From Cladosporium sp. IMV 00045 (taxonomy: Eukaryota > Ascomycota > Dothideomycetes > Cladosporiales > Cladosporiaceae), in NCBI GenBank assembly GCA_001931905.2, contig MSJI02000834.1, positions 41,804-105,803 of the forward strand: 64,000 nt of DNA, read 5' to 3'. A model generated the notes under the pieces. It was given only the letters and a program-made list of their open reading frames with translations. It was not told where the DNA came from and did not search any database. The position numbers and the translations under genes were made by a program. Of this stretch, positions 10,419-54,945 are shown in pieces. The first letter of the stretch is position 1. Each line of letters begins with the position of its first letter.

Positions 10419-10759
10419 AAGGTGTGTGAGAGGAAGTAAAGGCATCGAATTCGATCTTGATCTTCTTCGTCCCGTCCAATCCTGAGCCTGTCTTTGGTTA
10501 CTGGTAGTTCCTCAATACCACGATCTGACGAGAGAGCAAAGATGGAAAACAGACATTCAGTCGCTTCTCGAAGCAATCTCATAGCTGGCTACTTTCTAAC
10601 TCACAATCGAACCTTACGAAGTGCTCAACGTCCCATCTGATGAATATGATAGAAACTGTACATTATACTGGTATAGTACAAGATTCATTTCGCCACGCTA
10701 TACGTATCTACACATATACACATACATATATACATCCACACACGAATTCACAGTCCATT

Positions 10760-12001
10760 CTACAACTTAACAACCTCCCACCCCCTCAAATCCAACTTCC
10801 CAAGCACCCCACCCAGCCTCCCCTGCGTCTCGATCCCACCAACCCACTCCTTCCTCCCCGCCCAAGCACTCACAAACCCCTCGGGTCCAGAAACGAACAA
10901 CAAATCCTTCCCCTCCTCCGCCTCACTCTCGGGCGAGAACGCCCCCCTCACAAGCGTCGTCGCATCCACAGGCCGGATGAAACTCCCCTCCTCATCCACG
11001 AAGTAATCAACCGCAACTCGTCCTCCGCCCGCGCGTTTCAGCGCTTCCAAGCGCCGCACGATATCGCTCTTCGCCCGCCCTTCCACGGCTGTCGTTTGCG
11101 CCGAGTCGTCTTTCGCTGGCGTGCTGAAGGGGCTGAACCAGCCTGCTACCGTCTCGCCCCATGAACTGCTGGGCAGCACGGTATCGCTCTTCCCGCCCTC
11201 GCAGTCTTCCTTTCGCCTGTTCGCCCAGAGAATGTGCACATCCGCCCCCTTCGCTTGCGCCTGAGCTGCTTCAGCAGCTTGCAGAGCAGGCGCAATTCCC
11301 GTACCGCCCGCGAGAAAAATTATTTTGCGCGCGCGCGTTGCGGGCGGGAGGCTGTATTCTGCGGTCGGGCCGCGGAGCTCGATTTCCGCTCCTGGTTGGA
11401 GGCGGTGCAGGTACGAGGAGACTTCGCCGTTGCGTTCGCGCCGGATGAGGAAGCGGAGTTCTTCGGGCGGTTGGGAGGGTGAGGGGGGGAGGAGGGTGTA
11501 GGCGCGCGCGATTTGGAGTTGGGGTTGTTTGAAGAGGATGCTGCGGATTGTGAGGGGGGAGGTCGATGGTGAGTCTGGGGTCGGGGCGGCGTTCAGATCG
11601 ATGCCTTTGCTGCTCGCTGAGAGGGGGCGGAGGGTGAAGATCGAGCAGGTGGAGGAGATGTCTTCGCGCCCTGCGAGGCGGTATTTCACGAAGCCGTCTT
11701 CGCCTACTTCATTTCCGCTTCCTGCTGTGCCGTCCTGAGCCTTTTTCTTGTGCTTGTAGGTGCTGTAGCCGAAAGCTACCACGAGACCGATGGAGACTCC
11801 GAGGATTTTGGAGAAGCGGCTGAGACGAGCGTCGTTGCCTTTGCTGTCTTTGGGGGAGGGCGGTTCGTAGTGGGGGATTTGTTGGTTGCGAAGGCGGGTC
11901 GTTTGGACGAAACTGCGGGCGGTTGTTCGGGTTGCGGTTCGTTGGCACTGTTGAGAGCTTCGCGTCGCGAGCGTTTGCGCGCGGGCGATGTTGGGTCGCA
12001 T
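10760..12001 (-). CDS. Cyc2-like mitochondrial FAD oxidoreductase
   Basis: Single exon, 413 aa. The N-terminus (MRPNIARAQTLATRSSQQ) is Arg/Thr/Ser-rich, a probable mitochondrial presequence. One transmembrane segment follows at about residues 66-82 (ILGVSIGLVVAFGYS). The remainder is a ferredoxin-reductase-type FAD/NAD fold: ARAYTLLPP near the FAD-binding beta barrel, AEIELRGP, FLAGGTGIAPALQAA for the nucleotide-binding loop, and a C-terminal FVSGPEGFV motif. In yeast, Cyc2 is an inner-membrane flavoprotein that supports haem attachment to cytochrome c. Membership of the FNR-like fold is secure. Assignment to Cyc2 rests on the presequence, membrane anchor and size. It is convergent with palC (about 340 bp apart). 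Confidence 0.8.
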   Translation of the reverse strand: MRPNIARAQTLATRSSQQCQRTATRTTARSFVQTTRLRNQQIPHYEPPSPKDSKGNDARLSRFSKILGVSIGLVVAFGYSTYKHKKKAQDGTAGSGNEVGEDGFVKYRLAGREDISSTCSIFTLRPLSASSKGIDLNAAPTPDSPSTSPLTIRSILFKQPQLQIARAYTLLPPSPSQPPEELRFLIRRERNGEVSSYLHRLQPGAEIELRGPTAEYSLPPATRARKIIFLAGGTGIAPALQAAEAAQAQAKGADVHILWANRRKEDCEGGKSDTVLPSSSWGETVAGWFSPFSTPAKDDSAQTTAVEGRAKSDIVRRLEALKRAGGGRVAVDYFVDEEGSFIRPVDATTLVRGAFSPESEAEEGKDLLFVSGPEGFVSAWAGRKEWVGGIETQGRLGGVLGKLDLRGWEVVKL

Positions 12002-12581
12002 TGTGGCAACAAGGTGAAGTGTTTAGAAGTGTGTGTAGAAGTTGTTTGAGGCTCTGCTTAACACTTGGGATGTTCAATTGGAATTTAAGGTTTTAAGCTT
12101 CACGTCGCTTCCGAATCCCTGGGAATTAAGTAGGGACTGACGTCGGCAGGGCTTGAGTACATGCTGCTATGTGTCCATGTACTCAAAATACCCTACACGT
12201 AGGCACATTGGAGGGAGAAGGCATACATACATATATGTGTCGAGAAAGGAAAACAATAGAGGACGAGCTGGCTCTGCTCGTCGGTTGGCAGCACCGTTCG
12301 CATCGGAAAGAACATCATTTGGTGGCATTCAAAGGCCGATGAGAAATGCTTGCGCCGTTGGGAGTTATTGATGAGCAGAGGGATGTTGCTTGCCTTCTAC
12401 CCACTGCACTTATGAAAGATGAAGACACGAAACTAAGCCATGACAAGTGAAATCGATATGGCCTCCCGAAAACGCAGATACGACTTTCAAAACTGGCAGC
12501 CGATCCACCCACAACACGTTTCAGAACGGAGCACTGTGCTCGGAGCTACCAAGTGGCTGGTCTATCCATCATCCCCCCCCC

Positions 12582-14591
12582 TCACTCGTTGCTCTCGTCT
12601 TCATCCTCTTCCGTGTCACTCTCGCTTACCTCTTCGCCATCCTCTTCATCTTCAGCCTCACCCGCCTGAGCATTCTTAGGTGGTAGTGAAGATCTGTGCT
12701 GCCAAACCAGCATGAACTGTAGGCAAAGTTCCTCCAGAGATCTGTCACGGACTTTGCCGAAAGGCTGCACTTCCAAGTTGTGTTCGACAGTCATTACCTT
12801 TCCAAGATTGACACGAGACATTGGATCCAGCACATTTCGCGGCATATCTGGGTACATCCTGATTGAGATCGGCCTCATACCTTCTTCTCCTCGACGGGAT
12901 GGTAGCTCGGCGGGATCTAGAGTTGGGACTGATCTACCAGTGTATATGATGCAGTGCTCAGACTTCCGCACCCCACGCTTTGCCACACCCTTCCCGGCGT
13001 ACGAGGTGATTGTGAGGACATTGCAATACCCAGTACCCTCTCTGATCACTACAAATGTGCGGACTTCGGAATACACATGCTTTCCGAATTCATTGTGTTC
13101 CCAAGTACTATGCAATGAGCCTGTTAGACTGGCTGGACCATCGACCGAGGCAGGCTCGGACCACAGCACTCGGAACACTCTTCCCAGTCGATAGAATTTT
13201 TGAGGGCGCGAGGAGAATGATAGGGAGAGATCCAGAGTCCTACTCTCTGAATTGGTATTCGTGTAGAATATTTCCCCCATTTTCGGTTGCTTTAGCCAAT
13301 TCGAAAACGAGTCCGACTCCGTCTTTGCTTTTGGTCTCGATGGCATTTCTGCCCTTTTAAAACTCCTGCGGAAATTCTGGACAAGCCCATCTTGACGCTC
13401 TACCTGATCCGTGAACGAGTTCAAACGTTTCGCAAGCGAGTCATTGCCCAGAAGCTGGCCAAACCGGCCTTTGGAGATTCTGCGAAAGTCCGGTGTTTCG
13501 GCTGCGGTCCTCCTTTGCGACCCGCCATAATCATCGTACCGGATTTTCCCAGAGTATATAATTGATAGGAACTTGATAGCGGCGTTGGGCGTCATCGAAT
13601 TCCAGACCGAGACTGGCAGGGACAACATGCGGATATAAGAGTCAGACTCAAAAGTCGCAACAGGTTTGACAATCTCGAGAAAACTGATCGCTGCTATGTT
13701 TGGAGGGGCATGATCGCGGAACCATGCCACCCAGGCGTCTCCGGAACACTGTTCGCCAAATTCCGTCAGGGTGACCGAAATCAAGATCCTACATCGAGAC
13801 TGCAATTGGCGCAGATCTTCTTTGAGCGTGATTGCTTGATGTGGGTCGCTTGGTGATTGTGCCAAAGGGTCCCGAAGAGGTGCCAGTAGGATACATGTAT
13901 CGCCTTTCCTGACACCATCGAAAAACGGTGGCGACTTCAATTGGCGGATAGATGGATTTTCCAAGAGCCTGGCGTGAATAGAGAAAACTGAGCATGGCTG
14001 CGCATCAAGGTCTTTTAGCTCATGTATAAAAGCTTTGGTCAAAGTGTTCTGATTCGAGGCTTTCTCATTCCAGCTGGCAAGCAGCCAATGCCGCTGCCCT
14101 TTGTGTTTTCGAGTTGCGTGTCGGACAGGATTTGATGCGTAGCAACAGTCAAGAATGAAAAGAATATCTCCTTTTGCATTCATCACTTTCTCCTGGAGAT
14201 CAGACCAATCTACCCAAGGTGATGATGGCGCAGATGCATGAAGTGGTTGAATTTTCCATGCTTTCCAGATGGAGTGCTGTGTCATTTTGTCAATTTCGCC
14301 GTGACCGCCATAGTAGATAATGAGAAGCCCGTTGTCGTTTCTGCAATGCTGGCTTTTCGTTTTCGAGAGAACCTCTTCCACATCGAATTCAGGCTCACCG
14401 CTGGAGGGGATCTTGAAATGAACGGTGGAGAATCGATATGCGTCCTCGAAGATGGCCTGGAGTTGTGTGATTTCTTGTTCAGTCCCAAGGTCATCGTCCA
14501 CCAAACTGAACATCAAGACGTGCACGCTTGAGTATTTTTGCGCCGGTCGTGGAAAAGTGAGCTTCGATAATCCTTCTGCGACTGCTTTCAC
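12582..14591 (-). CDS. caspase-like protease (C14 fold) fused to DUF6590
   Basis: 669-codon open frame; the true N-terminus is unresolved. Residues about 20-235 form a caspase-like domain. The catalytic His lies in IIYYGGHGE (H97) and the nucleophile in ILFILDCCYAS (C150), so both residues are present. Residues about 466-625 match DUF6590 (FYRLGRVFRVLW, SYAGKGVAKRGVRKSEH, LDPMSRVNLGKVMTVEHN). A long acidic tail ends the protein. I see no NB-ARC/NACHT, WD40 or TPR. The frame at 14591 opens with GTG, there is no ATG near it, and the in-frame coding-like sequence continues upstream to a TAG at 14670-14672 that could instead be a splice acceptor. A short 5' exon is therefore likely. It is divergent from the gasdermin-like gene that follows, which suggests the gasdermin is its substrate (inference). 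Confidence 0.8.
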   Translation of the reverse strand: MKAVAEGLSKLTFPRPAQKYSSVHVLMFSLVDDDLGTEQEITQLQAIFEDAYRFSTVHFKIPSSGEPEFDVEEVLSKTKSQHCRNDNGLLIIYYGGHGEIDKMTQHSIWKAWKIQPLHASAPSSPWVDWSDLQEKVMNAKGDILFILDCCYASNPVRHATRKHKGQRHWLLASWNEKASNQNTLTKAFIHELKDLDAQPCSVFSIHARLLENPSIRQLKSPPFFDGVRKGDTCILLAPLRDPLAQSPSDPHQAITLKEDLRQLQSRCRILISVTLTEFGEQCSGDAWVAWFRDHAPPNIAAISFLEIVKPVATFESDSYIRMLSLPVSVWNSMTPNAAIKFLSIIYSGKIRYDDYGGSQRRTAAETPDFRRISKGRFGQLLGNDSLAKRLNSFTDQVERQDGLVQNFRRSFKRAEMPSRPKAKTESDSFSNWLKQPKMGEIFYTNTNSESRTLDLSLSFSSRPQKFYRLGRVFRVLWSEPASVDGPASLTGSLHSTWEHNEFGKHVYSEVRTFVVIREGTGYCNVLTITSYAGKGVAKRGVRKSEHCIIYTGRSVPTLDPAELPSRRGEEGMRPISIRMYPDMPRNVLDPMSRVNLGKVMTVEHNLEVQPFGKVRDRSLEELCLQFMLVWQHRSSLPPKNAQAGEAEDEEDGEEVSESDTEEDEDESNE

Positions 14592-14914
14592 AAACTCCGA
14601 GATATTCTGAAAATGCTCGGTCGTGTTACCGCTGGGATATTGAGAAGCGATGGGATGATGTTTGCAAGGCTAAGCACAGTACGAGTCCAAACCGGATGAT
14701 AGACTGTGAGCCATGCCGAGATCTGTCATGGAATAAGAACGCTGTCGCCTAGCAAGCTGCCGTGCCATATTTGTTTTCTTTAACTCCTGTCCATTGCAAG
14801 CAGCCTCGTGCGTGGATAGAGAAAGTGAAAGATAGCAACGTCGATGTAGCTATCGGTGCTTTTGTGGCCATTGCTTACTGTATTCTCAGCTCGGGCTGCG
14901 AACACGCCACTCAT
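14592..14914. promoter_or_regulatory. shared divergent 5' region of the caspase-like and gasdermin-like genes
   Basis: Only about 320 bp separate the supported coding parts of the two genes, so both promoters and 5' leaders must lie here or overlap neighbouring exons. On the plus strand, TTACTGTATTCTCAG ending near 14890 resembles a branch site plus acceptor, so the gasdermin leader may be spliced. On the minus strand a possible acceptor ends at 14670. Co-regulation is inferred from the arrangement only. Confidence 0.4.
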
Positions 14915-15909
14915 ATGCACCTTCGCTTATGCAGATGCGCGCTGCAGCAGTTCGCCGATGTGGAACCCAAGAGTCTTGAGACTGAAGGGTGGAAAGCGCC
15001 ATCAAGATTGGTAACGACAGTAAATGAAGCCGGAATCGAGTGGCCCATTAAGCTGTCCGAGAGCGTACAGGAGAGGAAAATTGAAGCCAACCTGAAAGCG
15101 AAGTAAGTCTGGTCAGGCCTTTTGGCTGCAGCATCGTGATTAATGCAGTCAGTGTTCCAAACACTTCCCTATCTGGCGGCTTCACCATAAGTTTCGGAAC
15201 CAAAAGGGGCGCAGGAGCTGTGCTCATCACCGCGGGAGACGTAAGAGTAGCCAGTTGAGGAGGGATCTGGACGCTTATAACTGGGTGACAGAGCCGCAGA
15301 ACATGCGGAAGCTGCTTGGCGATTGGGAAGAGATCTTCAAGGAGAAGCGAACTCTCTGGATGATCACCAGGACTTACACTGCGAAGAGCTGTGCTCTTTC
15401 GGTACTTCATTCCCCGGAATCGTCGGTCACGGTTGGCGTACAGGCCAACGTGGTAGATGTGCTTCAGGCGAGCCCTACATTGCAGTGGTGGGAGCAGGGA
15501 ACTGACAAGACTTGGATCAAGTACAAAGACGTAAGGTTGCCGCATTTATCATTTCCAGATTACCAGACTGATGTCCAAAGGACTCTGGCGTCGTATTGTT
15601 CATGAGCGGAATTGCTTTCCGTACAGGCTTCTTCCGCAGATCTGAGGTGGGTGCTTGATGCTGACATGCCGCGTGCATTTGCTGACTCTGAAGCTTTTCG
15701 CTGAGCACAAACGGCTCAAACAAGACCTTACCCGCGATGCCTCGGCCTCGGGTCTCCAGTACGCGATGATTGATGAGCAAGATGCGCTGACCGCGGTGGT
15801 TATCCCTGAGTACGTAGGGCGAAAGAGCGAGGAACTTGAAGCGGAGCTCGAAAGCAGATTCTCCGGTGATCAGTCGGGTAGTGATGATGAGTCTGACGCA
15901 TATGGTTGA
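14915..15909 (+). CDS. fungal gasdermin-like pore-forming cell-death protein
   Basis: Five exons by splice signals and phase: 14915-15102, 15153-15240, 15300-15530, 15581-15646 and 15694-15909. Introns of 50, 59, 50 and 47 nt give 262 aa, close to fungal HET-Q1/RCD-1-type gasdermins. Visible family features are the Gly-rich beta hairpin at residues 71-87 (GGFTISFGTKRGAGAVL), the LWMITRTYTAKSCAL strand at 111-125, SSVTVGVQA at 133-141, and VVLFMSGIAFRTG at 173-185. A short Ser/Asp/Glu-rich tail (about 234-262) follows the last strand. Known relatives are membrane-pore formers freed by proteolytic removal of a short C-terminal piece, causing regulated cell death. The start ATG (14915) is the least certain boundary. 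The 59-nt second intron was chosen because the nearer acceptor breaks the frame. Confidence 0.75.
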
Positions 15910-16700
15910 TGGTTCGCTGAGGTGAGTAAATGGGAATGCATGGTTAAGGGTTGACTGATCAGATTGGATGAACAAGCAGAGGAAGAGGAAGCTCGATGGC
16001 ATGGATGTTTAAAATGTTGACTGGGCCGACTTCGGAGGAAACAATAATATTTCTATTACTCCTTCTTGTTCTTCACAACCCTATACCGGTCATGAAAGAC
16101 AGCAAAGCTTCGTAGTTAAGGGCCTAAACAGATGGAAAGAAGCAGTTGTTTGCTCTTTTACAAGTCCTTGTGAGGAGCAATGCATTCTTTTGGTACAGGA
16201 AAAATCCTCATTACAAGGTTTCAATCACCCCAGAAAGATGTGAGTAACGGATGACTGTCGACGGATTCGAATGATCTTTACTTAACACAGCAGCAGAGAA
16301 GATAAAGTGACTGAAAGAAGACGAATGATGACAAAAAACCAAAGTCAAACCCCCAAACCACCCAACCACCCAATCGGGTATAAACCCAAGCCGCCCACCC
16401 TCGTCCGTAGCTTATCCCGTTGAGGCAATCAGTATCATGAAGATAAGTCGAAATCGTCAAGAAACAGTGTAAATGAGAAAAGCGCCCGAAACCCGAGAAA
16501 ATCCAAACATCAAAGGGTGCCCCCAATGCCACGATGAAAGGCATCCTGTCCCATGCCATCCTATCCCATTCCCGACCCATCCCGAACCTACTTCGTCCTT
16601 AATTCCCAAGTTTTTCCTTCTTGGCTTTCCCTTATTCCCCCAAAGAAACCGCCGAAAGGCCCGCCCGAAAGCGATCTCCAGAACTCAATAATCAAAAACA
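15910..16700. other. intergenic region, gasdermin-like gene to phosphodiesterase gene
   Basis: About 790 bp between two convergent genes. Only short, unconvincing frames occur. It should hold both 3' ends. Pyrimidine-rich stretches lie around 16560-16720. I see no gene or repeat. Confidence 0.4.
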
Positions 16701-18671
16701 TTAAAACCAATACCCCTCCCCACCCTTCGAAATGACAAACTCACACCCCAACCCCTTCCCATCCTCCTGCAGCGCGCGCTCGTAATTATTGAGTTCCTCC
16801 TCAATTACCTCGCTCACATGCGGCCCGTCCTTGAGAGTATCCTTAACGTGTATGACCACGACTTTCAAGCCCTTCAAAGGCGGCTCCCAGGGTTCTTCGT
16901 TGACGGGCGTCTCCTGCGCGAGATTGGATCGGTTGCCTACGTCGAATGTGCTCGCTTTGGTGAAGCCGTTGGGGCCGAAGTGCGGGCGGTTTTGCGCGTG
17001 GTAGTGCGGATGGGAGGTGGACATGGGAGACATTGGGACGTCGGGGCTGGCGTCTGATGTTGGGTAGGCGGGATTAGAAGGGGATGGTGGACCTGCAAAG
17101 GCCTGCATCGGTGGTGAATCGGGCATGCTGTGGTCGGGTTCGCTGCGGCGGCGGTGGTTCTGGCTCACCGTTCGGCCGGCGAGGCTGCGGCTGCGTTTTC
17201 GCTCGCTTTCGCCTACGGCGTGGCGTGCGACTTCGCCGCTGGATATGCCGGAGCGTTTGCGCTTCTTGATGTTCCTGTCTTCTGCTTCGAGTTGGAAGCG
17301 TGCTTCTCGAACTAAAGAGGCAAGAGCGCAGAGTTCGGTAATTAAGTGGCGGGGAGCGAGGTGGCCGAACAGGTATTCGTCTGAGTGGCTGTCGTCGTAG
17401 GAGCATTCGATGAGAATGCCCGTCAGGCATCCGCTGGCAATCTTCCTGGATGCCTCTGCCCAGATCAAGTGGGTGCGAGGCGAGAGTGATAGCGAATCCG
17501 GTTCCACATCCCCGAAAATGAGGATTTCTCTGCCTGTTTCACTATCCCGGATGAAGTACGCTGTACTGTCCACTACGCAAGACCCTTCCTGTGGATGCAT
17601 GTGCGGAGACGGTTGATTATTGTGGAAGCTCGCCCTGGGCGTTGGCCCTGGAGTACCGGGTGTAGAGTATTGCGACATAGAACGCGCCAAATTTTGGCCT
17701 GTCAGATCGGCGGAACCTCCATGATTAGTATCTGCAATGTTTGGAATGCTGCCACGGTGTTGGTGTGCCGGAGGAGATTTGGTGCATACACCGTGGCTGA
17801 CTTTGAACGCCTTCGCGCCCAAGCCATCACAGACGTCGATGTATCCACGTCCTTCGCCCTCGCCCACCATTGGATCACCACCTTCCTTTAATCGTTGAAA
17901 GGTCACGAATCCCACACCGCCGTCTTCATCGCTGAGGTTTGGCCAAATGACGTCGTTGAAGATATGCCGCTTGACGGCGTCAACAGTGCCGGGCAAAGCG
18001 GCAAGAGTCTTTGGCTTGGAAGTTGCGTGGAAGGCAGCCGTGTTTATCGCGAATCCTGATATGTGGTCCAGATGCGGATGTGTGATGAGGTAAGTTGAGA
18101 TGTAAGTCTGTAGCAGATGCAGCGCGTTCGCCCTGGCAGAAGCATGCGGTAGTCTCATCCCAGCGAATGGCCCATGCGACATGTACATGGGCTCCGGTTT
18201 TGGCGTTTCTTCGGCATCGGAGCTCTCGGTATCTCCCTCCATGTCTTGTGTAGGAGACAACGATGTCCTCGCGAGATCTTGGCTCAAACCAGGCGTCTGA
18301 GCCCCCTTTGCAGCCTCATGTCTTTCCTCTGCGTCTGCCTGCTGCTTGGTGAGAGCAAAGTCTCTCTCGACGATTCTAGTGATCGGCGCCAAATGGCTGC
18401 CGGCGTCCACTGCAAGTATGCTACTTTTCGCCCATTCTGTTGCAGCGCTTCGTACCAAGAAGGCAGTGACACTCTCCTCGCTAGGTCCGCCGCTCGCGCC
18501 TAGGCATATCACTTGCAGCGCCGGTTTGCGACCAGCACGACTGCCTCTCCCTCTCTTGCCGCTGTTGCTGTTGCCGCCGCCGAACGAAGCGGTTCGGGCG
18601 CCGTCCAGATTGCGCCGCGACGCTGACTCTCCGCCAGAAGAGGTGAGTCCATGCTCTTCAGTGTTGTTCAT
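16701..18671 (-). CDS. class II low-affinity 3',5'-cyclic-nucleotide phosphodiesterase (PDE1 type)
   Basis: Single exon. From the ATG at 18671 (MNNTEEHGLTSSGG) it encodes 656 aa; 41 further in-frame codons upstream are Arg/Cys-rich and look non-coding. The core has a metallo-beta-lactamase-like fold: LQVICLGASGGPSEE at the start, the metal-binding signature ITHPHLDHISG, KVSHGVCTK, and FIRDSETGREILIFGDVEPDS. The segment LIECSYDDSHSDEYLFGHL is typical of the class II family. It hydrolyses cAMP and so damps PKA signalling. Compared with yeast Pde1 the protein is long: low-complexity inserts rich in Ser, Pro and His interrupt the fold (for example about residues 300-350 and 450-560). Confidence 0.9.
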   Translation of the reverse strand: MNNTEEHGLTSSGGESASRRNLDGARTASFGGGNSNSGKRGRGSRAGRKPALQVICLGASGGPSEESVTAFLVRSAATEWAKSSILAVDAGSHLAPITRIVERDFALTKQQADAEERHEAAKGAQTPGLSQDLARTSLSPTQDMEGDTESSDAEETPKPEPMYMSHGPFAGMRLPHASARANALHLLQTYISTYLITHPHLDHISGFAINTAAFHATSKPKTLAALPGTVDAVKRHIFNDVIWPNLSDEDGGVGFVTFQRLKEGGDPMVGEGEGRGYIDVCDGLGAKAFKVSHGVCTKSPPAHQHRGSIPNIADTNHGGSADLTGQNLARSMSQYSTPGTPGPTPRASFHNNQPSPHMHPQEGSCVVDSTAYFIRDSETGREILIFGDVEPDSLSLSPRTHLIWAEASRKIASGCLTGILIECSYDDSHSDEYLFGHLAPRHLITELCALASLVREARFQLEAEDRNIKKRKRSGISSGEVARHAVGESERKRSRSLAGRTVSQNHRRRSEPDHSMPDSPPMQAFAGPPSPSNPAYPTSDASPDVPMSPMSTSHPHYHAQNRPHFGPNGFTKASTFDVGNRSNLAQETPVNEEPWEPPLKGLKVVVIHVKDTLKDGPHVSEVIEEELNNYERALQEDGKGLGCEFVISKGGEGYWF

Positions 18672-22469: not shown

Positions 22470-24283
22470 TTGGGATGTTGAATGCTTGGTTGAAGTGGGA
22501 CGACGTCGACATTGTCAACTACGCTTGTTATGGTGGATCGCGAAATGACTAAAAAGTGGAACAAGTTGAGGAGAGCCAGTGAATTTTGCTTGTTTTCCAT
22601 GCAATGCTTTTACAGGAATTAACTTCAATGAACAGAACCTAGAATGGAAAGTGTCCTTTCTTCAGCAGTTTTCGGGTTTGATTTGTGTATGGCATCATAA
22701 TTTTCCCCGTTCAAACAATGACTTAACGTAGTAGGTCGCAAGAGACTTATGACCGGGTGGAGCCACGTGGGTAACTGGGATCAATCATAGATTTTACGAA
22801 GTCCAACGATGTTCAGTATCAAGCCTGAAAGATACCAATAGTTTTTCCTTGAACGCTGCTGTAAATGAACAAGCCTACATGTGTGGTCGTGAGGGCCTAA
22901 GACATGAAGTCTGCAGCCCCGAAGCCCTGTAGTTACCACCAACCCTACTGCATGCCCTAACCCTAGCACCCAAGCTGAAGGATGTTATTTCAACTTCACT
23001 TGCTCCTCGAACATGGTCCAAAGCATTCAGACTTTACTTGAGAGGTTATCGAACATCAACTTCAGTTGTCTTGATATCCTCCGACGACTACGAACACGAG
23101 CGGCAATCACGGGCCGCTTCATCCTTTCGTAGAGCCGCGCCGAGGTCTCCACTCTCTCACGGCTCCTGACAGCAATCCCTCCGCTTTTTACCTAGGAGGG
23201 CGCATTTCATCAATTTGGGAAATGGATGAATCTCTCTGGTCTAGCAGCACGCTTCGCATTCGCAATCGACTTGCCACAATACGAGCAATACGACACGGCA
23301 GTCCCCTGCCTTATGGATCACCAAATGGCGCTCTTCGCTCATTGACGAACGCCCGGACAGATTCAATGTATCTATCACAGAGTTCTTTGACGCCCCATCG
23401 AACGCTTGGTGGAGAGATACGGAAGAGCATCGACTTGGTTGCAATCTAAGTCCAGGGAGGTGGGTGGCTGTCTAGCCAGCCTGATGAAACGCCAAGGCCG
23501 TCAGAACCGCGCAAGCGACGTTCTTGTTGCTAATGCACAAAGTTTGGCAGTGCGACACGTTCAGCGCCCAAGGCTGCACGAACTCATTGATTGGGGATGC
23601 TACAGGTGTGAGCTCCTGGCTCCTGGTGCTGTAACATTGATTTCCCTTGCAGGAGGCCGTAGCAGTCAATCGAAAGCTCCCTCCAAGATCCTCAAAGTCT
23701 GCCTCTCGCATCAAAGATATACGAGCTCGATTCGCCGAGTATTCGGTCAAGCAAGCGACCCACCACGCAGACACACTGGCGTCAACAACCCATGTCTGGG
23801 GTGATTAGGAGACGAGACGCCACAAGCGAGCCGACTGTCGCAAACTCCTGCCAAACACCCTCGCTCGGACACGCCTGAACCCATTTCGAGAATCTGTCAA
23901 ATATATCTCTGACAATAACACATGGTGTCTTCCACTTTGCTCGCTTGGTCCATTCGACAAGGCGCCTAGTCAGTCCAAGCGAGTGGAGTTCACGCTGATT
24001 TCCGACTATCTGACTTTGTGGCCAAGAAAGAAATCGACATGGGCAGGGAAGAAGTCAGTCTTAGCGCTCGTTCAATTGTTGAGTATCGTATGGTATAAGA
24101 TGGGAGCTTACCAGCAGCATGTAAGTTGGATTCTTCAAACACATTCAATATATTTCCTCCAGCAACCTTCTTTCATTACCCACTCATTCATTCGTTATTC
24201 ATCTTCGTTGATCGAAGATTATCTCACTATCCTTTCGCACACATTACCAATCAACCAAACCACCTCAAAACAAACCTTTCAAA
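22470..24283. other. gene-poor stretch upstream of the LPMO gene
   Basis: About 1.8 kb without a supportable gene. Frames up to 132 codons at 23406-23804 overlap one another and show no domain. Two telomere-like CCCTAA units occur at about 22954-22966, too few to mean anything alone. The last 200 bp has CT-rich and CAA-rich sequence typical of a fungal 5' leader. Confidence 0.4.
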
Positions 24284-25389
24284 ATGAAGACCACCGCTTC
24301 CGTCATCGCTCTCGCCGCCGCCGTGCGCGCTCACTACACCTTCGACAGGCTCGAGGTGAACGGCGAAGAGATTGGCACTGGCTACATCCGCGAGCACACC
24401 CGTGGCTACATGCCCACCAAGGGTCAGGAGATCCTCGAGAACGACTTCCGCTGCCAGCCCGGTGGTGAGAGCGGCGCCGACACCGATGTCTACACCGTCG
24501 GGCCGGGTGATTCTGTTGCCTTCAATGGTGCCTTTGGCATGAACTCTATTGAGCACCCTGGTATGTCACTCCTATACTCTCATAAATGACGTCACTGACT
24601 AAAGATAATGCAGGCCCTGCCCAGGTCTACATGTCCCTTTCCGACGACGTCAAGTCCGACGACGGCTCCGGCGAATGGTTCAAAATCCAGGACACTCTCT
24701 TCTGCTCCGACCCCGGCAACGAGGGCGCTCTGACCGACGCCTGGTGCACCTGGGGCGAGCCCGGTATCTCCTTCACCATCCCGGAAACCATCCCTGACGG
24801 CGAGTACCTCGTCCGTGTCGAGCACGTCGCGATTCACGGAGCCCAAGGCTCTCCGGATGGCGCTGAATATTATTACGCTTGCGGTCAGTTGAAGGTTGAA
24901 GGCTCTACTGTCGACTCCCTTCCCGATATGGAGACTATCAGCATCCCCGGGGGCGTTCAGCCTGACGACGAGGCTGTTATGTTCAACATCTGGACTGACG
25001 TCTCTGAGTACCCTTACACTGTCGGCCCGGCTCTTATCCCTGGTGGTTCCACATGGGGCTCGGCAGATGGGTCCAGCGATACCACTGTTGTCAATGGCGG
25101 CGGCGAGTCATCCTCGCCTTCTTCGGGGTCTGGTTCGTCCAACTCTAGCTCTTCCGAATCTTCCAACTCCAACTCTCAGTCTTCTTCTGATGAGGAGAGC
25201 GTCTCCACCGAGAACAGCAACGAGCAGCAGCAGGGCAACTCCTGGGGTGCACCTTCCAACAGCGACAACAGCCAGCAGGGTCAACAACAGGACAACTCTT
25301 GGGGCTCTGACTCCAACAGCGGCGCTCCCGTGCAGTCCAACCAGCAGGACTGCGAGGTCCAGTACATTCGCCGCTCTTTCAGGGCTTAG
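24284..25389 (+). CDS. secreted AA9-type lytic polysaccharide monooxygenase
   Basis: Exons 24284-24560 and 24614-25389 (53-nt intron, GTATGT..CAG) encode 350 aa. The signal peptide MKTTASVIALAAAVRA is followed directly by HYTFDRLEVNG, so the mature protein begins with the His that forms the copper histidine brace. The second brace His is in SIEHPGPAQVYM, formed across the splice junction, and the axial Tyr region is EYYYACGQLKV. LVRVEHVAIHGA is also typical. The enzyme oxidatively cleaves cellulose or hemicellulose outside the cell. After about residue 230 comes a tail of roughly 110 residues rich in Ser, Asn and Gln, with no CBM1 cysteine pattern; the terminus (CEVQYIRRSFRA) is unusual. AA9 is the best fit; exact substrate cannot be told. 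Confidence 0.88.
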
Positions 25390-25882
25390 ACGTTGCAACA
25401 ACTGGACAGTCTGATCATTTCGTGTACTTCAGGGTTGGATGCATTGAGTTGATGAGCAATGGGCTTTTGTGTGGATGGATGAGGTCCAGGTCGCCCTTTT
25501 GGTTCGTTGCTGCGCTCGTTCGGCATGATTCGAGTTCAAGAGAGATTTGTTGTCAAAGTCGGGCTTAGTTGAGATATTTGTGTATCTCGTATCATTCAAT
25601 GGAGAAGCAATTCATTGGGCGATATCGTGTCATTTGGAAAGATCAAACAGTGATACTACTCTTTTGTGGCCTGTTACGCCCCAGATCAGCGACAACTTGA
25701 TAATATAGGCCCTCGCTATTCTGAAGAAATATAGTGCTCATCTCTCAAACAAATTTGACGTGGACTGTCTCTGCATAAAAGCAGTATTTCGGTTAATGCA
25801 ATCTCATAAATGTGTTTCAAGGCTTGTCTTCCATCCCAGATGCTGCACATAATGCAACAGATGCCAATCTCAGTCATGCCTG

Positions 25883-28002
25883 CTATGTTTTCTTTCCCCT
25901 AATCCCGTCCGATATTTGCTTATGGCGCTTGCGTAATTGTTGCTCAGATGTGTCGCTGGCACCATGCGGCCGTTTTGCGAGTGGCTGCGCCTCTTTGCTG
26001 CGATCTGGCAAAGTCTTTTCTTCGGATGATTCGTGTGTCGCCTGCTCTGGCATCTTCCGCTGGATGAGATCTAGGCATCGGATTGCTGTCAGTGTGTCGG
26101 GATGCTGCAAGCCCAAAGTTTTCTGGAATTCCTCGAGCGCCTGTGTATATAGCTTCTGCTTCCGGCCAGCGTCTCTGGGCATCGTAAGTAAAACCAAGAT
26201 TGCTCATGTACCTGCACATGTTTGGGTGCCCCATTCCATACACCTCTTTCGCCAGGGCCAATCCTTCCAACTGGAGAGCTTCTGCCTCAACCCATTTTCC
26301 TTGTTCGGCAAAAATCCATGCCGACAAATGCATGCTGTGTATTGTATCTGGATGCTTTGTTCCGAATACCGCCTGGCTGATCCGCAAAGCTTTTGCGTGA
26401 AACTCATCTGCCTCTTTCCATCGTTTTTGATAACTGAGCGTTGCTGCTAAATTTCCCAAGCTGCGGGATGTTGCTGGGAACTCTTCTCCGAATTTCGCTT
26501 GCGATATCTCGTAGACTCTCTTGAAGAGCACTTCTGCTTCTTCCAGCCTGCCACTATCCCGAAGAATGAGTCCCAGATTGTTCATTAATGAGAGTGTGAC
26601 CGGATCTTCCGCTCCCAATAGGCCTTCATTGATCTCGAGCGCCATTCTTTGAAACCTTTCTGCTTCTTGATACTGTCTTTGGTGCCAGAACGTTCGCGCC
26701 ATCATTTCGATACTCATTGCTGTAAGATCATTGTTTCGTCCCAATTGTGTTATTCTCACATCCCTCGACGCACGCGCCATCTCCAAAGCTTCGATGTGAC
26801 GTCGTCGCTCGTTCAGATACAAAGCAGAATTATGCATGATTGAAGCCAATTCCAGAAGCGCATTGTTGCTTGCCGGTCGATATTGTGTGGCCATCTTGGC
26901 ATGAGGGGACAGTCTTTGGCCAGCTTGTAGGGATTGTGCGTATCTGTAGTCGAACTTCAGAAACGATTTGTCCAAGCAGCGGATTAACATGTCACGTACA
27001 TCTTCGAACACGTTCTGTGCGTTCAACCAAATATGAATTGCTTCTTGGACCAGCCTGTGCATTTCCCATGTCTGCTCGGTCTCTGTTTCTGAAATCAAAG
27101 AGAAGCTGAGAAGTACTGCAATGTCTTCTCTGAAACAAAAAGCACCATCAGATGAATCATTCGAGAAGTCGTGGTTTGCAGCGCGTGCAAGCAGCAGTGA
27201 TTCTGGAATCGCGACCCGATCGCAGAAATTCATCAGTGCCAGCAGATCTGCGGCAGACTTTCGACCGTCGAGAAGATGTTCGAACGAAATTTGCCAGGTC
27301 AAAGCGATAGAGTTTCTGGAGTCTCTATCCCTGTTCAGGTCTGGATGACTTTGTTGTAGAAGGCTCGAGCGGGTCTGGCGACTTCGCTGGATCTGTTCGT
27401 GGTATTTGCCGGTAGAGTAATGCTTGCCCATCCTCCGGATGTATGCCACCCCCTGCGAAATGGCCAATGGAATGCAGTCCAGTGCTCTTGCCAATGTTCT
27501 ATTGTCTGGGCTCGATCGTTCAAGCGTCCTTTCAAGAAGTTCCTCTGCCTCTGCTTCGTTCATGACTCCAACGTGAATCATTTCCGTATCTTGGACCAGC
27601 TTCAAAGCCTCATCCTTGGTTCGCGATGTGATCAGCAAGGAGCCGTGATCGTGCGAGGGGAAGTAGTCGATTCGTCTTTTTGATGACTGGACCTTGTCTG
27701 ATGCTGTCGGGGTCGCTTCGAGAAAAGCGGCATCGTCGACATTGGCTAGGATCACCAACCATGTCTTGCGAGTGTCCCGCAATCTCAGCATTGGATTCAG
27801 AGACCTTCCCTTCTTCGCAATTCTGGCGTGCATCGCTCAGTAGGTCATCGATTGCAGGGATCTTCTCGGACAGCTCTTTGAGCTTTGGAGGCAGGCCTTG
27901 GGCATCTTTCACGACATTTCCGATGTTGATGATCGTCGATGTAATGCCGATGCAGGCGTCGATGAGCTGGACGACAGCGATGGCCTCAGCACCGGTCGCC
28001 AT
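25883..28002 (-). pseudogene. decayed STAND/NLR-like gene: SesA, NB-ARC remnant, TPR
   Basis: The minus-strand start at 28002 gives a SesA-type effector domain (VVQLIDACIGITSTIINIGNVV, LSEKIPAIDDLLSDARQNC). Near 27785-27830 the reading switches frame straight to the Walker B region (KTWLVILANVDDAAF), then GSLLITSRT and IPLAISQGVAYI of an NB-ARC core. The P-loop and everything between are missing, and the first Asp of kinase-2 is Ala. At least six kinesin-light-chain-type TPRs follow (for example NNLGLILRDSGRLEEAEVLFKR, under 20 kept here as NLGLILRDSGRLEEAE). At about 26148-26158 the last TPR continues in another frame (LYTQALEEFQKTLGLQHPDT) to a stop at 25883. Intact relatives are allorecognition or immune receptors. 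Two lesions plus a lost P-loop argue for a non-functional gene, unless the assembly is wrong. Confidence 0.78.
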
Positions 28003-29177: not shown

Positions 29178-30169
29178 GACTGAAATGGCGATCATTGGAA
29201 AAATGGAAGCCCATTGGTATTTCCAAACTATGTCCAGATGCCTGCGATACGCGCATGCGTGTTGGGTTTTGTGGGCATTACGAACAGACTCCGGGACATC
29301 CCCTCGGATACAGGATGGCGGAGGAAATGGGGCCTTGCGAATGGCAGAGCACTTTTAGTTGCAGCTTGATGCTTAAATCGGGCTTTGCTAAGCATCTCAC
29401 CAGTCACCGTCACCGAAGAGCTGGCTAAACTGTCATCCGCCCAAGCAAAGTCGAAGCGAGGCGAGGAATAATCGCTGGTCAGGCAAACATTTCTGGTTGT
29501 AGCCGGCTTCGCTTCTTCGACTTCTTCACGAAGAAAGCACCGGCGAATCGCTTCCCAGGAGCGAATGCTGCACATTCTTCAGTATGTATAATATCCAACT
29601 TTACAGGTCATGATGGCAACTCATCTCAACACTTTCCACATAACTTTGTATCGCCTCTTTCTTTGGTTCGACTAGTAGACTCCCAGGTTGTAGACGCATG
29701 CGAGATCCAGCGAAAGGACATACCAGCTTTTCCGAACGATACGTGCGTTGTTTTGGTTATGTCTCTGCGCGTTGACTTTGATCTAGCTGCCTTCGTCTGC
29801 TTTGCACTTATGCGTCTTGAGAAGGAACGGAGAGCTGGTTCTATGACTTCCGTATATTGCTGTCGTCGAAAGGCAACTATCTCATGCTACGATTGCAAGA
29901 TTGCCATGTTCCATGTCGGGGATGAGTACAGTATCTCCCTTCTTCTTTGACCTCTGACCGAAAGCCAGTATCCTCTTCCTCAAGCTTTGCCCAATCTCTT
30001 CATGTGAGAGACAGACATCAATTCTGAAAACAAGCAGGTCACGAGCCGCGAGTGCTCAATCACGAGTCTTGGCAATTCAGATAGCCTGCCCCCAACCTCT
30101 CCCCAGACACCACGCCCTCTCATGCACTTACCTTCGCCACCCATCCACCCAACAACAAGGTCGCCCAGC
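29178..30169. other. intergenic region before the MYND gene
   Basis: About 1 kb with only short frames, the longest 95 codons at 29663-29950, which shows a few Cys pairs but no family I recognise. The final 100 bp is CA/CT-rich, as expected for a fungal 5' leader. Confidence 0.35.
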
Positions 30170-30844
30170 ATGGCCCCTCCCACCACCTGCGCGAACTGCC
30201 AGTCCGTCCACGACTCTCTCAAGACTTGCGGTAGCTGCAAAGCCCTCAAGTACTGCAACCGCGACTGCCAAAAGGCGCACTGGAAGAGACACAAAGAGAA
30301 CTGCACGCGTCTCGCTCAAGGACAGCACCACACCTACATCTCCAGCGAGGAACTCACGCAGTACAACCTTCCGCACTCGCTGTTCATGTTGGATCTGGAA
30401 CAGCGCATACGCGACAACTTCGCCCCCCACGATATCCCGCAGCAGATGACGTTCCAGCTGCTCATCGACACGTTCCGCACGCGCCAGGAAGCTGAATTCG
30501 TCTTCGCAAAGGTGAAATTGGCCGACTCCGTTTACGATAACGCGCGGACGTCTGAGGTCGCCTTTCGCACTTTCATGAGCAAAGTCAGCGCTGTTCAGGG
30601 TCTCCTTCCGCCGTGGTGGTCGGCAGAGAAGATCGAAGAGTGTATCGCCTATTCTCGCACCACACCCCTCTTCTCTCTCGCTCTCGCCCTGACCCAGGCT
30701 CATGTTAACGCGATCTGGCGTGATGAGAGGATGTACCTCAAGCTCATGATGCTGGGGAGAGTCATCTATGGTTATTGCTCAGGTGGCGGGCGATTGGATC
30801 GTTTGATGACCTACTATATTGGAGTTTGCTGGCCTCATTGTTAG
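30170..30844 (+). CDS. MYND-type zinc finger protein
   Basis: 224 aa from the ATG at 30170 (MAPPTTCANCQSVHDSL). The first 45 residues form a complete MYND finger: CANC, CGSC, YCNRDCQKAHW and HKENC supply the Cys and His ligands of two zinc ions. The rest is helical with no SET domain or other catalytic motif. MYND fingers bind short proline-rich peptides, so a protein-interaction role is likely. Small MYND proteins of this kind are numerous in Pezizomycotina and mostly uncharacterised. The frame upstream of 30170 is leader. The last 15 residues may be altered by an unseen 3' intron. Confidence 0.8.
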   Translation: MAPPTTCANCQSVHDSLKTCGSCKALKYCNRDCQKAHWKRHKENCTRLAQGQHHTYISSEELTQYNLPHSLFMLDLEQRIRDNFAPHDIPQQMTFQLLIDTFRTRQEAEFVFAKVKLADSVYDNARTSEVAFRTFMSKVSAVQGLLPPWWSAEKIEECIAYSRTTPLFSLALALTQAHVNAIWRDERMYLKLMMLGRVIYGYCSGGGRLDRLMTYYIGVCWPHC

Positions 30845-32504: not shown

Positions 32505-33032
32505 GGGTGGGAGGTGGGTGGGTTTGTATGCCTAGGTCGATAAAGGGATGTTGACTTGTATATATGGGTGATGGGGAGTTAGACGGAGAGAGGCAACTAC
32601 TTTTTGCATGGTCTCTGGGCTAGATGTATTTGTAGCAGTCTGATACGTCTTCAACAGCAAAGAGGGTTGACCACCTGGGCTGTGGCCATGGTCTGGAGAG
32701 CACCCTTCCAGACATGGCTCGATGACTGGACAGATCACTCACAGGAATTTTCAAGACGATGTGATGTGTAAATCTGTTACGAGTACACGAATTACGAAAA
32801 TACTAAAGCAGCATCAAACCCCCATGATGCGCAGTTCATCATCAAGAAACTCCAAAAGCAGCACGAAAAGGTATCTAAAGCAGGACAAGAGGGACTCTCG
32901 TCCTTTGCAGTCGCGTCTGTATATAACGCGTGTTGGTGTACGGAGAATGAGACGGGCGAGTGGAGCGAATACCACCGCGCGTCTGCATCGAGTCAAAGGG
33001 GCAAAAACCACGGTCTGTGGCCTCTGACTTCT
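32505..33032. other. intergenic region between convergent NAT and PEX11 genes
   Basis: About 530 bp holding the two 3' ends. Short frames only, none convincing. Confidence 0.35.
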
Positions 33033-33876
33033 CTAAGCAGTCTTCTGCCACGCGCCGTAGAGGCCGATCAAGCTGCTGAGGGTGCCGGCAAGACCGACAA
33101 TGCCGTCGTCGAGGTTGAGGAGACCGAGACCGCTGCTGGGAACGGTGATATCGCACAGGTCGGAGATGAGCTGGAGCTGAGCAGCGCTTCTGTCCCTGTT
33201 TCGCGTGTGTCAGTATTCCTTTCCATGAGCTGTAAATTGGCACTCCCAGTACATACTTGGCCAGCTTCTTCACCTCCACAGCCTTCTCGGCATCCGCGCT
33301 ATCCTCCTGCTTCTTCGCAGCCACGCGCAGGTTGTACAGCGCGTACACGCCCGCAACAACATTGCAAGTCAAGCCAACCAGCCAAGCGCGGTAAGCCTCC
33401 TTCTGCAGACGCGCAGCGCCCGCAAACTTGCGAATGCCCGCGACGTCCGGGTATGTGAGGTTGTCAAGGAGCATGTAGAAAGCGTAGCCCAGCTGGCGAC
33501 CGACGGCCAGGTACTTGACGAGGGGGTCGGCGGTCTTCGCGTCGGACGCGACGGCGGCGAGCTTGAAGTGCTCGATGAACTTTGTCAGGCGCATGGCCTT
33601 GCGCACGCTGCCGAAGTTTTTCTTGAGCCCATTGAAGACTTCGACGGTCTGTTGGCTGTGGTTCGTGCGGAGGAGGTACCAGGCCAGGAAGCGCGAGAAA
33701 TATTGGATCGTGCGGAGGGTCTTGTCGCGGCCGACTGGTGAGAGAGAGAGGGATGTCAGACTTGTGTGCAGGAAGGAGGATTACCGTGGGTATATTGGGG
33801 TTCACTTACGAGTCGTGGCTACGAACTTTTGGTAGTGGGCGACTGCCGGGTGGTATACGAGGGCGTCGGCGACCAT
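33033..33876 (-). CDS. PEX11: peroxisomal membrane protein PEX11
   Basis: Three exons: 33876-33810, 33734-33257 and 33195-33033. Introns of 75 and 61 nt give 235 aa. Joins produce KFVATTLGRDKTLRTIQYF and EVKKLAKDRSAAQLQLISDL, both in keeping with the PEX11 family. The N-terminal amphipathic region remodels the peroxisomal membrane. The C-terminus GLAGTLSSLIGLYGAW is the expected final membrane segment. PEX11 drives elongation and division of peroxisomes. The long frame running past the second donor site to 32875 is intron read-through and is not used. A second PEX11-like gene lies at 56784-57780. Confidence 0.9.
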
Positions 33877-52920: not shown

Positions 52921-54945
52921 TCACAGTATCCACACATTTCTGGGATGATCAAAGCATGAAGAAGGCACAGGTTCTCCCATCGCCATACCCGTTGTTGACA
53001 TCGACCATGCAAGTCTTTTGAGAAACATGAGGAACCAAGCCATCGTCGTGTGCTGGAGAGATGTGCGGGGAGTCTTTCGCCCTCTAGTGACATAACCCTC
53101 GAAGCTACTTTCTCCGTCATGCCAGTAGACGAGATCCTCGAAGTATGCATCGTGAAGTTGATCCATGAAAATTTCCTCGTGCAAGGCGGCGCCTCTCGCG
53201 ACCACGACTGGGGAACCCACCGCACGCCTGAGGTATTGTATACCCATGAAGCAATGTGAGGCCACTAGACATGTGTATTCTGTCCGTTGTAGCTCCTCGC
53301 GGAACCATTCGCTGATATCGTTGAACACTCTCTGGGACAATGACATAGACTTTATGTCCAGATGCGCGCCGTTCTCTGCGTGTTCAGACGTGATTCTTTC
53401 GATGTCAATTGCTACTTGCAATAGATCATCCACTGCTGAGGTCACTAGAGACTCATTGCGGGCAGAACTTGAGGAAAAACTTTGGAGTTGGTTCCGTATT
53501 TGCTTAAGAGAATGTCGCCAATTGCGTGGCGAGCCAAAGGGGGAAGTTCCCAACGATCCCATGCTTGAAGTCCAGCCAGGGAAGTAATGCGATCTGGCTG
53601 ATGATACCTCGGGCAATGGCAAGTATTCACAAAGCAAGACAGCCGCTTCGTTTGCTATCATTGTCAGGGCAGTCTGAAAATGATTCGGGTGTGTGGTGTC
53701 CGACCCGGGTGCATGAAGTAGACTTTGAATGCTACCCGTCATTAGTCGTTTTTGAGCGACTGAACCGGTAGAATTGATCCGCTCCATGATAGCCTCAAAG
53801 ACATCAACGTGGCCTCTATCGGAGGTGCAGTAGATGTCATCCCCAACAAGCTCCCTTGAGACAGGTATTATACTGCACATCAGCTTGTCCGTGGCCCGAT
53901 TTGGAATTAGTTGCGGGTAGGTGTGGCTTTGCCCATGCCATCCGTCTTTGGTGAAAGCTGCAACAAGATCCATGTCATCTTGACGGGTGCAAATTAGACC
54001 GTCCCCTTGTCCATGAGCCATGAAGGAGCCTTTACTGAGATCAATTCTCCACTTCATCCCCAGGCGGAAACCGAGAATGATGAGCTCGCCGAGGGTTGTC
54101 TTGGCCATTGGTCTGATTGCGTCCTTCGGCATAACATCCCAGGTCCATTCCAGAGAGGAAATCGCAAGTTCCGTTCGTATTCTATCGGTTGAGACATTGT
54201 TGCCATTTGACGCAGCCTCCGGCGACAAGCCTTGTGCTGAGGAAGCTTGTGCGGTTCGATTTACCGTCGACTCGATTGTTTGCGGACTGCCTTTTGGGAG
54301 TGGATGCGTTGATGATTTTTGCGTCATGACGGCCGGCAGTGATTCTTTTGTCTCGGTGTCTTTATTGGCAAGATCGTAGAGAGCTCGGACTAACAGCAGC
54401 CACGAAACTTTGTTCTCAGTGGAGAATGCGCTGGCAGAGCGCTGGTGCTGTGACTCCAGATCCAGCCTGTCGTGAGCACCGTCCTCGAGGCTTAACGTCT
54501 CTTCCAGTACTTTTTTGCACTGGCTGAAGGCCAATTCTCTCGATGACCGATTGGTGGGTCTCCAAATAAAAGGATGAGTGCTACTTTTAGTTGGTTTTGC
54601 GTGGCGTAGGCTCGAAACACCGTCTCCTCGTATGGCCACACCATCAGGCAGGCGCCGAGAATATAAGATTTTGGGAGTGATGAATTGCGTTTCGAATCTC
54701 AGCTCGTGCCAGCGCCATCTTCGCCATGTCATTCGAGACCAGGGTCCGATGCTCGGTTCTCCGCATCTCTTGTAGCCCTCTGCGGTCTCGAATAGCCCTT
54801 TGAACAACGTCAAGCCTGCTAACAGAAACGAGGCTAGCGACACGGCGAGGGCTGCGGTGGATATCGTGACTGCAGAAGGTCCGGCGGCAGGAGAGGTCGG
54901 GACGGGACTTATGGAGGCGGTGATGGTAGCTGCGGTAGTCGCCAT
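52921..54945 (-). CDS. fungal protein of unknown function with N-terminal membrane segment
   Basis: 674 aa, single exon from the ATG at 54945 (MATTAATITASISPVPTS). One hydrophobic segment lies at about residues 30-48 (AALAVSLASFLLAGLTLF). It is followed by a conserved-looking Trp/Arg-rich stretch, WSRMTWRRWRWHELRFETQF, a pattern I associate with uncharacterised proteins common in Dothideomycetes. There is no signal peptide beyond the anchor and no catalytic motif I can name. The central part (about 140-260) is Ser/Thr-rich. Orientation suggests a short luminal or extracellular N-terminus with a cytosolic body, which is inference. Confidence 0.75.
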   Translation of the reverse strand: MATTAATITASISPVPTSPAAGPSAVTISTAALAVSLASFLLAGLTLFKGLFETAEGYKRCGEPSIGPWSRMTWRRWRWHELRFETQFITPKILYSRRLPDGVAIRGDGVSSLRHAKPTKSSTHPFIWRPTNRSSRELAFSQCKKVLEETLSLEDGAHDRLDLESQHQRSASAFSTENKVSWLLLVRALYDLANKDTETKESLPAVMTQKSSTHPLPKGSPQTIESTVNRTAQASSAQGLSPEAASNGNNVSTDRIRTELAISSLEWTWDVMPKDAIRPMAKTTLGELIILGFRLGMKWRIDLSKGSFMAHGQGDGLICTRQDDMDLVAAFTKDGWHGQSHTYPQLIPNRATDKLMCSIIPVSRELVGDDIYCTSDRGHVDVFEAIMERINSTGSVAQKRLMTGSIQSLLHAPGSDTTHPNHFQTALTMIANEAAVLLCEYLPLPEVSSARSHYFPGWTSSMGSLGTSPFGSPRNWRHSLKQIRNQLQSFSSSSARNESLVTSAVDDLLQVAIDIERITSEHAENGAHLDIKSMSLSQRVFNDISEWFREELQRTEYTCLVASHCFMGIQYLRRAVGSPVVVARGAALHEEIFMDQLHDAYFEDLVYWHDGESSFEGYVTRGRKTPRTSLQHTTMAWFLMFLKRLAWSMSTTGMAMGEPVPSSCFDHPRNVWIL

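What the first reader, a model, noticed from the sequence alone, without database searches (positions are those of the whole stretch)
12582..15909. Divergent caspase-like protease and gasdermin-like gene pair
A caspase-like protease with intact His-Cys dyad (H97, C150) is transcribed away from a five-exon gene encoding a 262-aa gasdermin-like protein, with about 320 bp between them. Fungal gasdermins of the HET-Q1/RCD-1 group are known to be activated by proteases encoded next door (the published HET-Q1/HET-Q2 pair uses a subtilisin-like protease). The arrangement here predicts a caspase-gasdermin cell-death module. The gasdermin is invisible to single-frame ORF scans because every exon is short.
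Basis: partly seen in the sequence, partly recalled or inferred. Interest (0 to 1): 0.92.

Follow-up and report, generated by a model that had tools for sequence, protein, structure and literature searches.

The report
Broken fungal caspase-gasdermin cell-death pair
Two back-to-back fungal genes look like a built-in suicide switch (a cutting enzyme and the pore protein it probably releases), but in this doubled genome both copies of the pair carry breaking mutations, and the two enzyme genes differ far more than most of their neighbours, as at loci by which fungi tell self from non-self.

Summary
The five-exon, 262-aa reading reproduces exactly. Its six named relatives (Cladosporium, Elasticomyces, Cryoendolithus) are 317-332 aa. 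The model of one of them has gasdermins as its best structural matches (Foldseek ranks 1-13, VIA-align ranks 1-21). Three of the six have a consecutively numbered gene related to the window's caspase-like protease.

In this 49.9-Mb, two-subgenome fungus (probably Hortaea werneckii, inferred) the window copy is broken: 288 bp holding the real gasdermin start are missing, 'intron 2' is conserved coding sequence hiding a one-base frame break, and the caspase-DUF6590 gene has an early TAG. The homeologous copy on contig C850 has different breaks.

The protease alleles are hyperdivergent: synonymous difference 0.65-0.78, against 0.14-0.37 in 15 clear window ORFs. Divergence decays through the gasdermin. 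An AU test rejects the two alleles as sisters in two segments (p 0.005 and 0.002). Two other ORFs in the window are also unusually divergent.

Best reading: an ancient, balanced caspase-gasdermin allorecognition-type locus, decayed in both halves of a hybrid. Pairing, divergence and breaks are shown, the fold through a relative; cleavage, allorecognition and the cause of decay are inferred.

The parts
12582..14768 (-). Caspase-DUF6590 gene (ATG 14768 to stop 12582), with an early stop
   Evidence: Frame from ATG 14768 conserved with relatives and C850; Pfam
14670..14672 (-). TAG in the conserved N-terminal segment of the protease (C850 has a sense codon)
14103..14486 (-). Caspase-like domain (weak PF00656, 20.8 bits against a cut-off of 21.4)
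   Evidence: residues 36-163 of the 669-aa ORF
14301..14303 (-). Codon of catalytic His (H97 of the ORF)
14142..14144 (-). Codon of catalytic Cys (C150 of the ORF); Asp two residues before
12726..13202 (-). DUF6590 domain (PF20233, 4e-43)
   Evidence: residues 464-622
14769..14951 (.).
   Evidence: in C850 the starts lie at 104369 and 104683
14951..14952 (.). Junction where 288 bp of C850 (true gasdermin start and about 50 codons) are missing
14952..15909 (+). Remnant of the gasdermin-like gene, from about residue 51 of the Cladosporium relative to the stop
15241..15299 (+).
15733..15735 (+). Codon of the conserved linker Arg (R264 in P0001), proposed cleavage site; 57 acid-rich residues follow
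   Evidence: the cleavage itself is inferred
12301..14700 (.). Block of low homeolog identity (48-72% in 300-bp bins)

Best explanation
This is one homeologous copy of a two-gene, pyroptosis-like death module: a caspase-fold protease fused to a sensor-like C-terminal domain (DUF6590), divergently paired with a gasdermin. Proposed mechanism: the C-terminal domain senses a trigger; the protease, whose Asp two residues before the catalytic Cys suggests Arg/Lys specificity, cuts the gasdermin in its linker at a conserved Arg (R264 of the Cladosporium relative); loss of the 52-66-residue acid-rich tail frees the pore domain to open the plasma membrane. The protease alleles of the two subgenomes are old, separately descended lineages, as at balanced fungal incompatibility loci. 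In this strain both copies carry different breaking mutations, so the module is probably dead here. Shown: family, pairing, hyperdivergence, breaks in the assembly; fold through a relative. Inferred: cleavage, site, sensing, allorecognition role, cause of the decay.
Confidence: 0.65

Rival explanations
1. The window genes are intact and working: 'intron 2' is really spliced, a short N-terminus suffices, and the remaining breaks are assembly errors.
For: The 59-nt stretch has a good donor and an acceptor and keeps the frame; no reads were examined.
Against: The true start and about 50 codons are absent. The spliced-out block is coding in all 11 relatives, with seven invariant columns among the six full-length ones. 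P0029, from another dataset, ends exactly at the C850 stop, though it may come from the same species or reads. Most clear genes of the two contigs are open in both copies.
Confidence: 0.1
2. The hyperdivergence comes from introgression or replacement of one protease copy from a distant lineage, or from fast evolution, not from long-kept balanced alleles.
For: Only one genome was examined, and a single replacement would give the same two trees. Other fast genes occur in the window: 25944-27833, and 52921-54945 with pS 0.58.
Against: Synonymous sites are near saturation, so fast protein evolution alone does not explain it. The gradual decay through the gasdermin exons (0.69 to 0.15) fits long linkage better than one recent clean replacement.
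Confidence: 0.3
3. The decay is ordinary loss of a dispensable defence module after diploidisation or during long clonal life, unrelated to making the hybrid viable.
For: Fungal death modules turn over quickly (PMC10197012 passages). Other ORFs also show breaks. The timing of the breaks is unknown.
Against: Both partners are broken in both subgenomes by different mutations. This is weak evidence, since relaxed selection predicts the same.
Confidence: 0.55
4. The neighbouring protease does not cut the gasdermin; the two are co-located immune genes and the gasdermin is triggered otherwise, as RCD-1 is by its partner allele.
For: RCD-1 is activated without cleavage (PMC12881547 passages). Three of six named gasdermin relatives have no consecutive protease in the list.
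Against: Pairing is kept across genera while the protease's C-terminal domain is swapped. A linker Arg is conserved in 7 of 7 aligned rows.
Confidence: 0.15

Closest known systems
HET-Q1/HET-Q2 of Podospora anserina (Clave 2022; original not held, known here through reviews)
   Same: Fungal gasdermin with a short C-terminal tail and a protease gene at the same locus
   Different: Serine S8 protease, cut after F238; here a caspase-like protease with DUF6590, and a conserved linker Arg
CHAT protease-gasdermin clusters of fungi (reviews)
   Same: Two-gene cluster with a caspase-clan cysteine protease
   Different: No CHAT domain was listed here; the weak match is Peptidase_C14, and the extra domain is DUF6590 or a Tle1-like lipase rather than TPR/NLR parts
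RCD-1 of Neurospora crassa (8JYZ, 8JYY)
   Same: Among the best structural matches of the relative's model
   Different: No sequence match; no protease needed for RCD-1
hetB and other het genes of Aspergillus fumigatus (PMC11138114, passages)
   Same: A caspase-related protease as an incompatibility gene (hetB); trans-species alleles and a narrow divergence footprint at het loci of that study
   Different: hetB is a CHAT protease present in one allele only, with no gasdermin shown; those loci were mapped genetically, this one was not

Membership tests
Gasdermin family | Gasdermin pore-forming fold | tested here: met
   For the intact relative P0001, not for the window copy; medium-confidence model
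Gasdermin family | Detectable sequence match to a gasdermin profile or solved gasdermin | tested here: inconclusive
   No such hit at E up to 10
Fungal gasdermin with protease partner (HET-Q1/Q2-like cluster) | Adjacent protease gene | tested here: met
   Window and C850; 3 of 6 named relatives by locus tag
Fungal gasdermin with protease partner (HET-Q1/Q2-like cluster) | Activation by proteolysis, membrane pores, cell death | not testable with these tools
   Needs expression; proposed below
Caspase family C14 | His-Cys dyad in GHG and DxC motifs | tested here: met
   Window H97/C150; loose patterns D-x-C in 24 of 24 and GGH in 22 of 24 listed proteins holding the region; strict patterns 23 and 16 of 26
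Caspase family C14 | PF00656 over the curated cut-off | tested here: inconclusive
   Window 20.8 against 21.4; of 10 proteins, three over, five under, two unmatched; P0021 over
CHAT protease | CHAT profile match | tested here: not met
   Not among families at E up to 10 for the window ORF or up to 1 for ten listed proteins
Heterokaryon-incompatibility locus | Hyperdivergent alleles not sister to each other | tested here: met
   two alleles of one genome only
Heterokaryon-incompatibility locus | Cell death when unlike alleles meet in one cell | not testable with these tools
   Needs strains and crosses

The most novel reading that the evidence does not exclude
A caspase-gasdermin incompatibility locus had to be silenced for a natural hybrid to live: the two parents carried old, mutually dangerous alleles, and the stable diploid survives because both proteases and both gasdermins were broken, each by its own mutation. 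Double-broken death modules would then mark, and help explain, stable fungal hybrids.
Probability: 0.25. Interest if true: 0.88.

Novelty: new variant of a known kind. Interest (0 to 1): 0.7.

Why it matters
Fungal gasdermin clusters are described with serine or CHAT proteases (reviews). A caspase-type protease whose C-terminal domain differs between relatives (DUF6590 or Tle1-like lipase next to gasdermins; HET or, below cut-off, kinase-like DUF7580 in remote ones) suggests a plug-in sensor design and a close parallel to animal pyroptosis. A hyperdivergent protease beside an ordinary gasdermin 3' half points to the protease as the recognising partner. The double decay in a two-subgenome strain makes a question testable from existing genomes: do stable fungal hybrids arise only after incompatibility modules are lost? 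PMC9535773 raises a role of incompatibility loci in forming H. werneckii hybrids (passages).

Tried and rejected

A lost N-terminal exon elsewhere in the window was looked for with P0001: chance hits only. Sequencing noise as the cause of the breaks was weighed with both contigs: 13 of 15 clear window ORFs have no stop in C850, and 11 of 13 clear C850 ORFs have none in the window; so noise is unlikely but not excluded. In one search, 9 of 15 ORFs were single-frame and stop-free in C850; the other six are the protease, 23983-24468, 25812-26450, 25944-27833, 30122-30844 and 32875-33606, some of them overlapping or unproven frames. Breaks are therefore not unique to this pair.

Rows dropped: P0034 as too short for the caspase tree; P0033, P0036 and P0037 as long branches before the AU test; P0033 again as too short. 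I had seen a first tree before naming the pair for the AU tests. Comparison ORFs: 15 of 31 rows (at least 200 codons, pN/pS at most 0.25). The search with a C114 paralog gave only 4 unnamed proteins, used to deepen the AF2 alignment. The species name is inferred; no tool named G000. Searches of print: 'gasdermin' with 'Hortaea' 0 papers; 'DUF6590' 0 papers; 'gasdermin', 'metacaspase', 'fungal', 'peptidase c14' 1 paper, listing only; five het/hybrid/pseudogene terms 4 papers, listing only.

Full report
What was claimed and what is there. The exon model reproduces exactly: 262 aa with four GT-AG introns. The protease ORF 12582-14591 carries H97 and C150. Pfam adds DUF6590 at 4e-43 in its C-terminal part and puts Peptidase_C14 just under its cut-off (20.8 against 21.4 bits).

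Relatives correct the gasdermin model. The search with the spliced protein gave 11 proteins: six named fungal proteins of 317-332 aa (Cladosporium, Elasticomyces, Cryoendolithus) and five short pieces from metagenome-type sources. The alignment shows two gaps in the window's reading. One is the N-terminus (about 50 residues, fewer in P0005). The other is a 20-residue block present in all 11 relatives, with seven columns invariant among the six full-length ones. By frame the window still encodes that block, one base out of step.

A homeologous locus explains the first gap. The window lies in a 49.87-Mb, 954-contig genome. Contig C850 is collinear with window 2-35175 at about 86-91% identity outside the pair and carries the same two genes. 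The alignment shows 288 bp of C850 missing from the window at 14951/14952. They include the gasdermin start (C850 104369; the protease starts at 104683, so 313 bp lie between). P0001's N-terminus has only chance matches in the window.

Both copies are broken, differently. Window: the 288-bp loss, a one-base break near 15242, and TAG at 14672-14670 in a protease segment that relatives conserve. C850: a one-base break early in the gasdermin near 104186, a frame break after the caspase domain, and stops in and after DUF6590. P0029, from another dataset that may be the same species, ends exactly at the first of those stops. As a control, 13 of 15 clear window ORFs have no stop in C850 and 11 of 13 clear C850 ORFs have none in the window. 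Random error is thus an unlikely cause, but reads were not available, and some other fast-diverging ORFs also show breaks.

Is the pairing real? Consecutive locus tags join gasdermin and protease relatives in three of six named cases: Q7P37_002411/002410, LTR17_024298/024299, and LTR56_021632/021631. For the last, listed contig lengths differ, so it rests on tag numbers alone. For the other three gasdermins no consecutive protease is in the list. The caspase part is joined to DUF6590 (P0012, P0013), to a Tle1-like lipase (P0030-P0034), and in remote relatives to a HET domain (P0037) or, below cut-off, to DUF7580 (P0036). In P0013, P0030, P0031 and P0034 the caspase part is seen by alignment, not by Pfam.

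Allelic history. In 300-bp bins, identity is 48-72% over 12301-14700, 79-82% over 14701-15600, 90% at 15601-15900, and 85-97% in the full flanking bins except three (69% at 10501-10800, 80% at 12001-12300, 81% at 16501-16800). Synonymous difference is 0.78 and 0.65 for the two protease segments, against 0.14-0.37 for the 15 clear ORFs. In the gasdermin it falls exon by exon: 0.69, 0.51, 0.39, 0.38, 0.15 (exons 1+2 against 5, Fisher p 3e-6 on rounded counts). The first protease segment has pN 0.21 against pS 0.78, so it was long under constraint. Trees of two separate segments reject WINDOW and C850 as sisters (p 0.00514, 21 rows; p 0.0023, 24 rows), although I had seen a first tree before naming the pair. 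C850 groups with P0016 and, in the second segment, with the 99%-identical P0029 and within a set that holds Cladosporium fusiforme. For the gasdermin's central segment the two copies are each other's nearest rows, with moderate support (83/85). That is the pattern of old alleles kept at one gene, as reported for het genes of Aspergillus fumigatus (PMC11138114, passages). It is seen here from one genome. The protease is not the only divergent gene: 25944-27833 and 52921-54945 also stand out.

Organism. Subgenome identities of 88.3-91.9%, sizes near 50 Mb and stable hybrid diploids are reported for Hortaea werneckii (PMC5952469 abstract and Results; PMC9535773 and PMC7601665 passages). The window fits, but no tool named the genome.

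Mechanism. About 80% of fungal gasdermin genes lie near a protease gene, 17-19% of them near CHAT-type proteases (passages of PMC12881547, PMC10989679, PMC10197012). Here the linker holds an Arg in 7 of 7 aligned rows, followed by 52-66 acid-rich residues; it lies in the low-confidence stretch of the model, and other basic residues are near. Asp two residues before the catalytic Cys is, from recall, the S1 feature of Arg/Lys-cutting metacaspases and paracaspases; PMC13304501 states the Arg/Lys preference of metacaspases (passage). I therefore predict cleavage there. What DUF6590 does is unknown; no paper of the library holds the word.

Verdict. The stronger finding is the divergent protease alleles and the double decay in a two-subgenome fungus. 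Whether the decay was needed for the hybrid or simply followed disuse is open; I give the first 0.25.

Noticed in passing
window 25944-27833 (-): NLR-like ORF of 629 aa (DUF7779 and TPR repeats) that is also unusually divergent from its C850 counterpart (60-64% in pieces), which has frame breaks.
   Followed up: partly
window 52921-54945 (-): 674-aa ORF without a Pfam match, 56% identical to its C850 counterpart over 471 codons, synonymous difference 0.58, open in that stretch.
   Followed up: no
L026 3124-4056 (-) and 1591-2172 (+), contig C114: A distant paralog of the gasdermin-like family (about 21% identity to P0001) close to a protein-kinase-like ORF.
   Followed up: partly
Proteins P0030-P0034 (Elasticomyces, Rachicladosporium, one unnamed): Relatives of the window's protease carrying a Tle1-like phospholipase domain; P0031 and P0032 have tags next to gasdermin relatives.
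   Followed up: partly
Protein P0022: Caspase-like relative with a Velvet domain at its C-terminus; perhaps a merged gene model.
   Followed up: no
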